Source: an uncultured Armatimonadota bacterium (GTDB lineage Bacteria; Armatimonadota; Fimbriimonadia; Fimbriimonadales; Fimbriimonadaceae). Taken from it: a stretch of DNA of 64,000 bases. Shown in pieces: positions 59,721-63,262 of this stretch. The position numbers were made by a program, and so were the translations under genes. The stretch's first letter is position 1, and each line of letters starts with the position of its first letter. Under the pieces are notes generated by a model. That model ran no database searches. It was not told where the DNA came from and was given only the letters and a program-made list of their open reading frames with translations. The stretch covers positions 62,001 through 126,000 of the forward strand of contig CAIYMO010000017.1 of the NCBI GenBank assembly GCA_903927345.1, read 5' to 3'.

Positions 59721-60296
59721 TCAGCGACTCTTCACAACTGGTTTCGCTACCGGCACTTCCCAAACGACTTCGCCAATGTTGCGGAAAGTCTTCATGCGGA
59801 CATGACAATCAATGAACGCGATCATCATCCGCTCCTCCGGTAGGGTCGCCTTTGACGCCAACAGATTCGGTCCGCCCTCCTTCGATTGAGCAAAGAGCAC
59901 AAGCAGATTCGAATCAAAGTCAGAGTTCTGGTTGAAGCCCCCAAGATTCTTGTTTAACCCAAGCGCGCGGTTGTCGACGCAATCGTAGGTTGGCAGGCAC
60001 TTAAAAGTCGTATCGATCAAGTGCTCTTCGAGAACCCCTGATTTGGGATGGTTCAGCAGGAGCTGGTTCCAGTTGGCCGTCGGACAGCCCCTCTCGTCGT
60101 AGTCGGATGCGTACACCTGCCATCCCAAAGCGAGCTTTTTAAGGTTGGAAATGAGCTGTGAGCGCGTCGCCGCAACTCGAGCCGAGGCAAAGATCGGACC
60201 CAAAATCGACACTGCAACAAACAGGAGGAAACCAATGACCAACAGCGCCGCCCAAGGCACCCGTCGTTTCGGCGATACGTCAACCTCAGGCTCCAT
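59721..60296 (-). CDS. Pilin-like protein (H-X9-DG/DUF1559-type), third of set
   Basis: I start at ATG 60296, which overlaps the upstream stop by one base (TGATG). The 191-residue protein has one helix (residues about 15-33), then S-A-R-V-A-A-T-R-S-Q-L-I-S-N-L-K-K-L-A-L-G-W-Q-V-Y-A-S-D-Y-D-E-R, the pattern of prepilin-like proteins (S-N-L-K-Q-I, Y-x-x-D-x-D). The classic prepilin leader (F-T-L-I-E) is missing. Its role, pilus-like or secretion-related, is unknown. Confidence 0.7.
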   Translation of the reverse strand: MEPEVDVSPKRRVPWAALLVIGFLLFVAVSILGPIFASARVAATRSQLISNLKKLALGWQVYASDYDERGCPTANWNQLLLNHPKSGVLEEHLIDTTFKCLPTYDCVDNRALGLNKNLGGFNQNSDFDSNLLVLFAQSKEGGPNLLASKATLPEERMMIAFIDCHVRMKTFRNIGEVVWEVPVAKPVVKSR

Positions 60297-60838
60297 CACT
60301 TCCCCTTAAAAACCGGCTCCCAACTCATCGACTGCAGCTCTGAAATCTCCGACCGCCGCGCCTTGGCGTCCGCCGACGCCCAAACCACAGTATCCCGACC
60401 AGAAAAGACCCGCTTGATCGAATCCTTATTCGCCAAAGCATGATAGCCCGTAAGAGTTGTGTTCACAAAAACCGGTAGTTGCTCCGCATTCGCCAAAGCC
60501 GAAACCTGAATCCCACCCACCGCCGGATTCAGCCCAATATCAAACTTGCTTGCCCCCGATCCCGGGGACTCCGTTCCTAAACGGTCACGAAACTGATAGT
60601 AAGGCAACAACGCCGTACTCCACTTTTCCACCGGACAAGCGCGATCATCATTATCTCCGGCATACTCCAGCCAATTCAGGGTAAGGGCACGGTGCGACGA
60701 AGCTTTCGAAACGGCGAATGCAATCCGCTCAGACTCCAGAAAAGCAAAGAAGAACCAAACCAACCCCGCCACCAGCCCCAAACGCAACACGGTCTTGAGC
60801 GGGAAGCGCCGCTTTACTTGCTGATGACCGGCTTCCAT
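60296..60838 (-). CDS. Pilin-like protein (H-X9-DG/DUF1559-type), second of set
   Basis: The 180-residue protein starts 25 bp inside the preceding gene's end. One helix (about 13-32) is followed by S-K-A-S-S-H-R-A-L-T-L-N-W-L-E-Y-A-G-D-N-D-D-R-A, the same helix-to-loop pattern as its neighbours, and S-M-S-W-E-P-V-F-K-G-K at the end, shared with the first gene's L-Q-W-K-P-V-I-S-K. The prepilin cleavage motif is absent. Clearly a paralogue, function unknown. Confidence 0.7.
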   Translation of the reverse strand: MEAGHQQVKRRFPLKTVLRLGLVAGLVWFFFAFLESERIAFAVSKASSHRALTLNWLEYAGDNDDRACPVEKWSTALLPYYQFRDRLGTESPGSGASKFDIGLNPAVGGIQVSALANAEQLPVFVNTTLTGYHALANKDSIKRVFSGRDTVVWASADAKARRSEISELQSMSWEPVFKGK

Positions 60839-61416
60839 TGCAGCCTCTGCGCCTCGTCAATTAAAGCCTTCTTCACCGCCCCGTCTGCCGTCGCCCAAAT
60901 CGTACGGAACGGTCGCTGCGAGGCCTTGCGAAGTGTCTCTTTCGTGACGTTGGCGTCCTTACCAGGCGTGGTGGTCAAGGCCAAAATCACGACATTCGAT
61001 GGATCCTTGAAATTGGCGACTTTCTGCAGCGCCACCTCTCGATTCATCCCGTACCCCAACTGTTCACCCTTGGTCGGTAGTAACGGGTCTTTGAGCCGGT
61101 CGAAATTAACATCCAGAAAGTATTTACGAACATTATCATTCCATCCCTCCTGTGGGCACGATATGTCGTCAAAATCGGCGCAATACAGATTCCACGCAAC
61201 GACGACTCCTTTCATGTTCCCCATTGATTGCTTGGACTTCGCCGCCAACTTCGCCTGACTAAACACCGGGAACAGAATCGCCCCCCCAATCGGACAGCAG
61301 CACATCAACATCGCCCCGCACCCAATCACCCACTTAGCCCACCCCGGCACCCCACTCTTCGGCTTCGGAGCCATATCCGAAGGAGGTGGCATTTGATAGG
61401 TCGGCGGTACATTCAT
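60814..61416 (-). CDS. Pilin-like protein (H-X9-DG/DUF1559-type), first of set
   Basis: The 200-residue protein begins Pro-rich (residues 4-25), then a helix (about 26-48, with C-C-C-P) running into F-P-V-F-S-Q-A-K-L-A-A-K-S-K-Q-S-M-G-N-M-K, the typical Armatimonadota-style prepilin-like block, then Y-C-A-D-F-D-D. A Pro-rich cytoplasmic tail in front of the helix replaces the prepilin leader. It heads the three-gene overlap run. Confidence 0.75.
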   Translation of the reverse strand: MNVPPTYQMPPPSDMAPKPKSGVPGWAKWVIGCGAMLMCCCPIGGAILFPVFSQAKLAAKSKQSMGNMKGVVVAWNLYCADFDDISCPQEGWNDNVRKYFLDVNFDRLKDPLLPTKGEQLGYGMNREVALQKVANFKDPSNVVILALTTTPGKDANVTKETLRKASQRPFRTIWATADGAVKKALIDEAQRLQWKPVISK

Positions 61417-61625
61417 CTCCCACTATTGTAATCCTAATCACGACTGAGCTGGTTGGCATAATCCTAGAGAAGCCCCTCGGAAAGCACTGAGAGCAGATCC
61501 AAAATGCCCACCCCTCTGAATGTTCATAAACAAAATCTTGGAACCTCCAAAACAACCGGTACGTTACAAATAACATAGGCCTCCAACAAAGAGAGACCAA
61601 CATAGCAAGAACCTCCCAATCCCTC

Positions 61626-61665
61626 GGCGGCCGCAATTTCAGCCAAACATGCGGTCGCCTTTTTT
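61626..61665 (+). terminator. Intrinsic terminator (or attenuator) just before the lipoprotein esterase gene
   Basis: GGCGGCCGC (61626-61634) pairs with GCGGTCGCC (61651-61659), 9 bp with one G-U, 16-nt loop, followed by six T (61660-61665). It lies on the plus strand only 15 nt before the ATG at 61681. No plus-strand gene lies upstream to be terminated: the 265 bp before the ATG (61417-61680) holds no supported gene. So it is either a leader attenuator or the end of a small RNA. Confidence 0.7.
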
Positions 61666-61680
61666 CGTCAGAATAGGCAT

Positions 61681-62589
61681 ATGAACAGCCACCTAAGTCG
61701 CGTATTGATCGGCGCATTCGCGATAAGTCTCGCCGCATGCTCCCACTCCGAGCCACGCACCGCCGGCCGTTACACCGAGAAGATCACCGTCGCCGGAAAG
61801 ACTCGCGACTACATCCTCCACATCCCAAAAGGCTACGACCACACCAAGCCAACCCCCGTGGTCATCGCCCTCCACGGCCTAAGCAGCACCGCTACCCAAT
61901 TTGAATCCGTCCTCAGACTCGGCGAAGAGTGCAACAAAGGCGGCTTCATCCTCGCCATCCCCAACGGCCTCCCCGAGGGGCTCCGCGGCTGGAACGCAGG
62001 CTTCTTCAAAATATCCGGCGAAAAATCCGACGTCGATTTCATGAAAACCATCCTCGACAAACTCGAAGGTGAGTTCAACATCGACAAGAAGCGCGAATAC
62101 GTCTTCGGACACTCCAACGGCGCGATGATGAGTTACTACCTCGGCTCCGTGATGGGCGACCGCCTAGCCGCCGTCGCCGGAATCTCCGGCTCCGTCGGGC
62201 TCCCTGCAAATGGCGGTCTCGACACCATCCCCGCCCCCAAATCCCCAGTCTCCGTCCTCCTGCTCCATGGCAAAGCCGACAACGTCGTGGTCTACAAACG
62301 CGGAATGAAGGCCATGCTCCAAAGCATGGGCGCTGACGAGAGCGCCGAATGGTGGGCAAAGAACTTCGGTCTTACCGCCAAGCCCGATGCCGTCGAATAC
62401 AAAAAGGACCAAGCCACCATCCGCCAATTCGGTAAATCCGAAAAAGGCGCCGAAGTCACGCTAATCACCTCAGAAAACGGAACCCACGAAATCTTCGGCG
62501 GCTGGTACGGCGCAGGACGCGAGCTCAAGAGCGGAATCATCGCCTGGGACGAGATCTGGAAATTCTTCCAGGAGCACCCTAAAGCTTGA
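61681..62589 (+). CDS. Lipoprotein esterase, PHB depolymerase/CE1-like
   Basis: The 302-residue protein has a lipoprotein signal (L-A-A-C, Cys20). The alpha/beta hydrolase parts are A-L-H-G-L-S-S-T (oxyanion loop), G-H-S-N-G-A-M-M (catalytic Ser), H-G-K-A-D-N-V-V (Asp) and E-N-G-T-H-E-I-F (His), the pattern of LpqC/feruloyl-esterase-like enzymes. It would act at the cell surface on esterified polymers. The terminator-like element 15 nt upstream suggests regulated read-through. Confidence 0.9.
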   Translation: MNSHLSRVLIGAFAISLAACSHSEPRTAGRYTEKITVAGKTRDYILHIPKGYDHTKPTPVVIALHGLSSTATQFESVLRLGEECNKGGFILAIPNGLPEGLRGWNAGFFKISGEKSDVDFMKTILDKLEGEFNIDKKREYVFGHSNGAMMSYYLGSVMGDRLAAVAGISGSVGLPANGGLDTIPAPKSPVSVLLLHGKADNVVVYKRGMKAMLQSMGADESAEWWAKNFGLTAKPDAVEYKKDQATIRQFGKSEKGAEVTLITSENGTHEIFGGWYGAGRELKSGIIAWDEIWKFFQEHPKA

Positions 62590-62882
62590 TTCAGTTCGAA
62601 TCCGAACTCTGGGTCTGGCGGTCCGATAGCGGATCCGGCTGGCACTTCATCACCCTGCCCGAAGCTGCCCGAGACGCCGTCAAATCCGAAATCGAAGGCA
62701 TCCCGCGAAAAGGCTTTGGCTCCGTCAAAGTGCGCGTAACAATAGGGAAGTCAACCTTCGAGACCTCTCTCTTCCCGGCCAAGGAGTACGGGAGCTACCT
62801 GCTTCCCGTCAAGGCAACCGTGAGAAAAGCGAACAGCCTATATGCTGGAGACGAAGTCAAAGTCGCGCTCGAGCCGCTCTAG
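62586..62882 (+). CDS. DUF1905 family protein
   Basis: The 98-residue protein starts at TTG 62586, overlapping the esterase stop (TTGA). F-I-T-L-P-E-A-A-R-D-A-V, G-S-V-K-V-R-V-T-I-G-K-S-T-F-E-T-S-L-F-P and Y-L-L-P-V-K-A-T-V-R-K match the DUF1905 beta-barrel pattern, including V-R-K near the end. Function unknown. It converges on the next gene with a 4 bp overlap. Confidence 0.85.
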   Translation: MIQFESELWVWRSDSGSGWHFITLPEAARDAVKSEIEGIPRKGFGSVKVRVTIGKSTFETSLFPAKEYGSYLLPVKATVRKANSLYAGDEVKVALEPL

Positions 62883-63262
62883 GCTGCCTTAGGCTTCGGC
62901 TTCCAAAGCCCCAGCGCAACGCCAAGCAACCCCGCAACTCCGGCCCCAAGCCGGATTGACTCAATCCAAAACTGAACCGTCTTCAGCTGGGTCGGATAAA
63001 TCTTGTTCGCATCAAGGTAACTCTGGTCAACCTTGTAAACCCCATCAACCGGCTCACCAATAAACGCCTTCGGATCCTCGATAATCGTGAGAGTTGGCTC
63101 CCCTAAAGGCGTCCCCTCCTCGCCAAAAAGCGCATCGCTCTTGTTCTGCTGAACCCGCTGAATCATCTTCGCCTTCCCCGCAAAAGAGTTGTAAGTAGGC
63201 ACCGTCGCGATCAATACGATCGCACTCAAAACAGCAACAAGAAGGCAGAGTTTCTTAAACAT
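62879..63262 (-). CDS. Small membrane protein of unknown function
   Basis: I choose ATG 63262 (127 residues), which gives a normal start M-F-K-K-L-C-L-L-V-A-V; an open frame runs to 63322 but would cross a terminator. There is an N-terminal helix, a polar middle and a C-terminal helix (A-G-V-A-G-L-L-G-V-A-L-G-L). No family is recognised. Only 13 nt separate the terminator's U-tract from this start, so its own promoter must lie within or before the terminator, or it depends on read-through. Confidence 0.6.
   Translation of the reverse strand: MFKKLCLLVAVLSAIVLIATVPTYNSFAGKAKMIQRVQQNKSDALFGEEGTPLGEPTLTIIEDPKAFIGEPVDGVYKVDQSYLDANKIYPTQLKTVQFWIESIRLGAGVAGLLGVALGLWKPKPKAA

What the first reader, a model, noticed from the sequence alone, without database searches (positions are those of the whole stretch)
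61417..61680. Strong terminator with no gene before it, 15 nt ahead of an esterase start
Seen: a 9-bp stem and six Ts on the plus strand; the 200 bp before it contain no plus-strand gene. Inference: a leader RNA that terminates unless a signal permits read-through (attenuator or riboswitch-like), or a small RNA ended here. A similar terminator lies 13 nt before the gene at 62879-63262, so this layout occurs twice in 2 kb.
Basis: partly seen in the sequence, partly recalled or inferred. Interest (0 to 1): 0.52.

Follow-up and report, generated by a model that had tools for sequence, protein, structure and literature searches.

The report
Stress-sigma-driven small RNA gene
The terminator in front of the esterase most likely ends a separate, conserved gene of about 93 bases for a small RNA, switched on by the same promoter type as a stress sigma factor in these Fimbriimonas-like bacteria; it is probably not a riboswitch of the esterase.

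Summary
The hairpin is real: 10 pairs (one G-U), loop 14, T6, window 61626-61665, 15 nt before the esterase ATG, and the only one of its kind in the window. It ends a conserved unit. Six of 20 genomes held for the genus carry it, one copy each, always just upstream of an esterase ortholog; none of the rest of 291 phylum genomes does.

Unit: promoter TGGAACC-N16-CGTT, invariant in 6 of 6 while the spacer is as different as random DNA (27% identity); a ~93-nt transcript with 5' hairpin and C-rich core; a terminator with one compensatory change. In close relatives the core is 97-100% identical while fourfold sites of the esterase are 41-55%.

The same promoter stands before an ECF sigma gene in those six genomes and a seventh. 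Best reading: an autoregulated ECF sigma factor drives a stand-alone sRNA, as in GsrN (Caulobacter) and FoxJ (Fusobacterium), FoxJ having been mistaken for a 5' UTR. The esterase may have its own leaderless promoter after the T-run. The second hairpin is an ordinary gene-end terminator. Expression, sigma dependence and targets are untested; target prediction gave nothing above chance.

The parts
61539..61545 (+). -35 element TGGAACC of the ECF-type promoter
   Evidence: Invariant in 6 of 6 copies; TGGAAC also in the 6 ECF-gene promoters of the same genomes
61562..61565 (+). -10 element CGTT, 16 nt after TGGAACC (17 nt after GGAAC)
   Evidence: Invariant in 6 of 6 with fixed spacing while the spacer is 27% identical
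61573..61665 (+). Predicted small RNA, about 93 nt (5' end inferred from the promoter, 3' end from the T-run)
   Evidence: Covariance models R1 and R2 find it in 6 of 20 genus genomes, single copy; 84-94% identical in the close trio
61578..61598 (+). 5' hairpin that pairs the first CUCC with GAGAG
   Evidence: Folds in all six; 91.2% of cells paired, one pair changed on both sides
61599..61625 (+). Unpaired C-rich core with ACCUCCCAAUCCCUC, the proposed target-pairing region
   Evidence: 97-100% identical in the close trio against 41-55% at fourfold sites of the esterase; mean unpaired probability 0.66-0.92 around CUCCC in six species
61626..61665 (+). Intrinsic terminator: 10-pair stem, loop 14, T6
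   Evidence: C-G to U-G to U-A change across species
61669..61674 (+). Candidate -10 (CAGAAT) of a leaderless esterase promoter
   Evidence: At -12, where TA...T hexamers peak in this genome (11 of 177 genes against 1.8 per position); AAGAAT and TAAAAT at the same place in G015 and G018 (sequences; offsets counted by hand)
61681..62589 (+). Esterase, lipoprotein-like N-terminus
   Evidence: PF00756 E 2e-9, PF02230 E 2.5e-7; NF050058 below its cut-off

Best explanation
Window 61539-61665 is a stand-alone small-RNA gene. An ECF sigma factor of the SigE/SigW/RpoE type, encoded elsewhere in the genome and with the same motif before its own gene, directs RNA polymerase to TGGAACC-N16-CGTT. A transcript of about 93 nt starts near 61573 and ends at the hairpin and T-run 61626-61665. 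It folds into a 5' hairpin, an exposed C-rich core (ACCUCCCAAUCCCUC) and the terminator. In the cell it probably acts in trans, with the core pairing to G-rich stretches of mRNAs, perhaps with Hfq, as the non-coding arm of the sigma factor's response. The esterase is a neighbour, probably transcribed mainly from its own leaderless promoter after the T-run. Shown by comparison: promoter boxes, transcript conservation, terminator, the shared motif at the sigma gene. Inferred: transcription itself, sigma dependence, trans action, Hfq use, targets.
For: Six of 20 genus genomes carry the unit, one copy each, next to an esterase ortholog; none of the other 285 of 291 phylum genomes does. Promoter boxes are 100% identical in 6 of 6 with fixed spacings while the spacer is 27% identical. 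In the close trio the core is 97-100% identical against 41-55% at fourfold sites of the neighbouring gene. 96.6% of structure cells are paired, against 37-54% when slid. An exact GGAAC-N17-CGTT lies before the ortholog of one ECF gene in all six carriers and in G008, 7 of 20. The product matches sigma70-ECF TIGR02937 above its cut-off. An Hfq gene is present in 6 of 6. The predicted RNA has no start codon kept across species.
Against: No RNA data. GGAAC-N17-CGTT is not enriched over its reversed control genome-wide: 49 against 42; TGGAAC-N17-CGTT in the six genomes: 70 matches against 66 in the control. Target prediction with the core gave no excess over shuffled cores, and the ECF and esterase leaders ranked 147 and 168 of 179. 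Two of five covariation measures do not exceed shuffles (194 and 257 of 500). The unit is next to the esterase in 6 of 6, which leaves a role in cis open. The six species are related, so they are not six independent observations; on the ECF tree they form no single clade.
Confidence: 0.75

Rival explanations
1. Regulated leader: the same ECF promoter makes the esterase mRNA, and the terminator is an attenuator or riboswitch expression platform that lets polymerase through when a signal is present.
For: The unit sits before an esterase ortholog in 6 of 6 genomes while the upstream neighbour differs between the three I compared. In G000, G015 and G002 the 5' arm can pair with the leader when the 3' arm is removed (mean probability 0.60-0.64).
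Against: The alternative pairings differ between species (G018 0.46, G001 0.37, G009 0.36), have different partners, and are weaker (-9.6 to -11.2 kcal/mol for the whole leader) than the terminator (-17.5 to -23.2). No Rfam riboswitch. The most conserved part is unpaired and C-rich. T-run to ATG is 15 nt here but roughly 35-41 nt in G002, G001 and G009 if the first ATG in frame is right (sequences, counted by hand).
Confidence: 0.1
2. Both: an sRNA gene whose imperfect terminator lets some transcripts run into the esterase, so that the ECF sigma factor raises sRNA and esterase together.
For: Kept linkage in 6 of 6. FoxJ of Fusobacterium lies in the same way before ylmH, with a strong internal terminator and a weak secondary start.
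Against: A candidate esterase -10 lies right after the T-run in the trio; the terminator is strong.
Confidence: 0.3
3. Ordinary terminator left behind by a lost or unseen plus-strand gene.
For: No plus-strand protein gene precedes it.
Against: Conservation stretches from the -35 box to the T-run and is higher than in the neighbouring gene; a relic would not keep it.
Confidence: 0.03

Closest known systems
FoxJ (and FoxI), sigma-E-dependent sRNAs of Fusobacterium nucleatum (PMC11005410; outline with abstract and section 6 read)
   Same: ECF-type sigma factor drives a small RNA that lies directly before another gene; FoxJ had been annotated as the 5' UTR of ylmH; conserved synteny and sequence; internal strong terminator
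   Different: FoxJ is ~156 nt and shown by Northern blot; other phylum; I made no sequence comparison; ours is unproven as RNA
GsrN, sigma-T (EcfG) dependent sRNA of Caulobacter (PMC5869019; passages and section 14 read)
   Same: -35 GGAAC and -10 CGTT elements; exposed C-rich segment that is the most conserved part; narrow taxonomic range of sequence homologs
   Different: The C-rich loop of GsrN is at its 5' end, ours lies between a 5' hairpin and the terminator; the sigma factor here has SigE/SigW/RpoE-type matches; no PhyR or NepR was looked for
MicA, RybB and MicL of Escherichia coli (recalled; only search listings seen)
   Same: Non-coding arm of an ECF sigma response
   Different: Different phylum; no sequence comparison made; their envelope-protein targets have no tested counterpart here

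Membership tests
ECF-sigma-dependent sRNA (functional class) | Promoter of the ECF type shared with the sigma gene itself | tested here: met
   TGGAAC-N17-CGTT invariant at both places in 6 of 6 genomes
ECF-sigma-dependent sRNA (functional class) | Short discrete transcript with intrinsic terminator and no kept reading frame | tested here: inconclusive
   Met in sequence; the transcript itself was not observed
ECF-sigma-dependent sRNA (functional class) | Expression depends on the sigma factor | not testable with these tools
   Needs RNA from induced and deleted strains
ECF-sigma-dependent sRNA (functional class) | Base-pairs with target mRNAs, often with Hfq | tested here: inconclusive
   Hfq gene in 6 of 6; target prediction no better than shuffled cores
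GsrN family | Sequence homology to GsrN | not tested
   No GsrN sequence was compared; Rfam release 15 gave no match at the gathering score
GsrN family | EcfG-type sigma with PhyR/NepR | not tested
   NCBIfam best matches of the sigma factor are SigE, sigma70-ECF and SigW; the 25 best shown hold no EcfG model, but PhyR/NepR were not searched
Riboswitch or attenuator leader | Match to a known family | tested here: not met
   No Rfam match at the gathering score in the window; best permissive match E 1.9, 14.7 bits where 37 are needed
Riboswitch or attenuator leader | Conserved mutually exclusive anti-terminator | tested here: not met
   Alternative pairing of the 5' arm differs between six species
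Gene-end terminator | Same-strand protein gene directly upstream | tested here: not met
   Upstream gene 60814-61416 is on the minus strand

The most novel reading that the evidence does not exclude
Apart from its own gene, this sRNA is the only direct target of the ECF sigma factor kept across the carrier species: a sigma factor whose conserved output is mainly one RNA. In the 70 exact TGGAAC-N17-CGTT matches of the six genomes I recognised only the ECF and sRNA promoters in all six; an ABC-transporter promoter was seen in two (L090, L158). I read the list by eye and did not align all 70.
Probability: 0.2. Interest if true: 0.72.

Novelty: new member of a known kind. Interest (0 to 1): 0.52.

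Why it matters
I found no small RNA described for Fimbriimonas or Armatimonadota in the library searched (0, 0 and 1 paper, the one a desert-soil survey by its listing). If true, this puts an ECF sigma factor with a non-coding arm in one more phylum far from Proteobacteria, joining Fusobacteriota, and asks whether such arms arise repeatedly. It names a sigma factor, its motif and an RNA, so it is directly testable. It also shows how a terminator in front of a start codon can look like a riboswitch and be the end of a separate gene.

Tried and rejected
Riboswitch or known RNA: no Rfam match. Dispersed repeat: the stem pattern occurs once in the genome. Weak model matches L058-L062, L116 and L117 look like chance: they lack the promoter and core, L116 reads as coding sequence, and L117 is a plain terminator behind a PEP-CTERM-like gene end. 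Unit with a drifted -10 in the family: the pattern found the same six, plus six matches in five genomes of other genera, mostly coding-like by eye, against 11 in the reversed control over 85 genomes. Same promoter before more distant esterase relatives: none in 12 loci. Targets: not above chance.

Corrections made on the way: the first alignment used L004 in the wrong orientation (corrected). One search placed the ECF start wrongly in L126 (G008), so it showed the motif in six genomes only; one search adds G008 as the seventh. MAFFT misaligned the terminators of the two subgroups; pair counts come from the model-fitted alignment A5, which leans towards its own structure. Starts are the first start codons of long ORFs, not mapped starts.

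Full report
WHAT IS THERE. Its energy is -19.1 kcal/mol, z -3.3, and it is the only stem of at least 9 pairs followed by six Ts in the window under my scan; 40 Markov sequences of the same length had none. The whole 274-nt intergenic stretch is not unusually structured (z -0.86). No plus-strand protein gene ends here; the neighbour 60814-61416 runs the other way. The hairpin at 63316-63281 (minus) follows the stop of a YceI-family gene and is an ordinary terminator.

A CONSERVED UNIT. A DNA search of 61 genomes (own and relatives) gave two strong matches outside the own genome, G015 (88% over 135 nt) and G018 (85% over 105 nt), both ending at the terminator. Alignment shows a block from a TGGAACC box to the T-run with little similarity outside it. 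Three more genomes with esterase orthologs at 48-51% protein identity, G001, G002 and G009, have the same layout. A covariance model from three sequences found the six and nothing else convincing in 20 genus genomes; a six-sequence model found the same six in 85 family genomes, with two weak matches that look like chance, and six of 291 phylum genomes (stricter filters). An exact-pattern scan of the 84,980-species genome collection gave three records, named Fimbriimonas sp., uncultured Fimbriimonas sp. and Armatimonadetes bacterium, all metagenome-assembled; their contig lengths equal those of G015, G009 and G002. Records of the own or very near genomes may be left out of that scan.

THE PROMOTER. 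In all six, TGGAACC, 16 nt, CGTT, 15 nt, CTCC holds without a gap. The boxes are 100% identical; the spacer is 27% identical on average, that is, at the level of unrelated DNA. GGAAC and CGTT are the -35 and -10 elements used for sigma-T in Caulobacter (PMC5869019, passages read). In the own genome GGAAC-N17-CGTT occurs 49 times against 42 for the reversed pattern, so most matches are chance; 9 of the 49 lie outside long ORFs by a crude call that also lost the sRNA promoter to a spurious ORF. One of the nine starts 55 nt before a 197-aa ECF sigma gene. Its product scores 113 bits for TIGR02937 sigma70-ECF (cut-off 42.9), and its best family by E-value is SigE, below that model's cut-off. The ortholog is in 20 of 20 genus genomes. 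The exact motif stands before it in 7 of 20: the six carriers and G008. In 12 of the other 13 a looser form, GGAAC-N15-19-NGT[ACT], lies within 320 nt, 7 of the 12 with GTC in place of GTT; G005 has none. So the motif belongs to this sigma factor's own promoter, and the sRNA shares it. On the ECF tree the six carriers fall with G005 and G008 in one well-supported group of eight but are not a clade by themselves; losses or assembly gaps are possible, and G008 is 89% complete.

THE RNA. From 61573 to 61665 the predicted RNA has a 5' hairpin that hides a first CUCC (unpaired probability 0.01-0.19), a C-rich core that is open (0.66-0.92) and the terminator. In the close trio the RNA is 84-94% identical and the core 97-100%, while third codon positions of the esterase are 49-64% and fourfold sites 41-55% identical. 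On the model-fitted alignment 96.6% of cells are paired, 0 of 500 shuffles reach this or the covariation score, and slid structures reach 37-54%; but the number of pairs changed on both sides (2) and of pair types (7) is not above shuffles. No start codon is kept across the species. An Hfq gene is present in all six genomes.

THE ESTERASE. Genes of this genome with free upstream DNA show a peak of TA...T hexamers at -12 (11 of 177 against 1.8 per position), a sign of leaderless promoters, in a sample of 433,561 bases (first version). The esterase has CAGAAT there, with AAGAAT and TAAAAT in G015 and G018 (counted by hand); only the last fits TA...T. The 15-nt gap can therefore be a promoter -10 and not a leader. 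In G001, G002 and G009 the gap is longer and I saw no clear -10. This step is an inference of moderate strength.

HOW IT PROBABLY WORKS. Stress frees the ECF sigma factor, which activates its own gene and the sRNA gene; the sRNA core pairs with G-rich mRNA stretches. Only the link between sigma promoter and sRNA promoter has comparative support. Duplex prediction against 179 start regions found no excess over shuffled cores (median -9.7 against -10.4), and neither the ECF nor the esterase leader ranked high (147 and 168).

CLOSEST KNOWN. FoxJ of Fusobacterium was misannotated as a 5' UTR and is a sigma-E-dependent sRNA with a strong internal terminator and a weak start behind it (PMC11005410, abstract and section 6). 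GsrN of Caulobacter shares the promoter elements and a conserved C-rich loop (PMC5869019). Membership in a sequence family with either is not claimed and was not tested. Searches for Fimbriimonas with small RNA, Armatimonadetes with sRNA and sigma factor, and Armatimonadota with sRNA gave 0, 0 and 1 papers (listing only). The library is limited to open-licence papers.

VERDICT. It is a new member of a known kind, in a phylum where I found none described; its RNA, sigma dependence and targets await experiment.

Noticed in passing
L068 / L119 (G000:C10:3885-4530): ECF sigma gene with GGAAC-N17-CGTT starting 55 nt before its ATG; a 300-340-aa serine-hydrolase-like gene lies upstream in 5 of 6 carriers, and no anti-sigma gene is evident directly downstream (no family search made of the neighbours).
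   Followed up: partly
L090 (G000:C32:75182) and L158 (G018:C1:697197): TGGAAC-N17-CGTT 10 nt before an ABC-transporter ATPase-like gene in both genomes: a candidate third target of the sigma factor, with a leaderless or nearly leaderless start. A similar match in G015 (C20:268407) was not checked.
   Followed up: partly
window and L096-L115: TA...T hexamers peak at -12 from start codons, a sign that many genes of this genome are leaderless; Shine-Dalgarno-like words occur at -20..-5 in 34 of 177 genes against 12 in a control position.
   Followed up: partly
window 59721-61416, minus strand: Three consecutive proteins of 192, 180 and 200 aa with a hydrophobic stretch near the N-terminus and similar motifs (YASDYDERGCP, YAGDNDDRACP, YCADFDDISCP), no Pfam match: apparently a tandem family of pilin-like proteins.
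   Followed up: no
window 62586-62882, plus strand: DUF1905 gene overlapping the esterase stop codon, kept next to the esterase in G015 and G018.
   Followed up: no
L125-L138 upstream of the ECF orthologs: In 6 of the 13 genus genomes without the exact motif the sigma gene's putative promoter reads GGAAC-N17/18-TGTC, in one GGTC: the -10 may have drifted with the sigma factor.
   Followed up: partly
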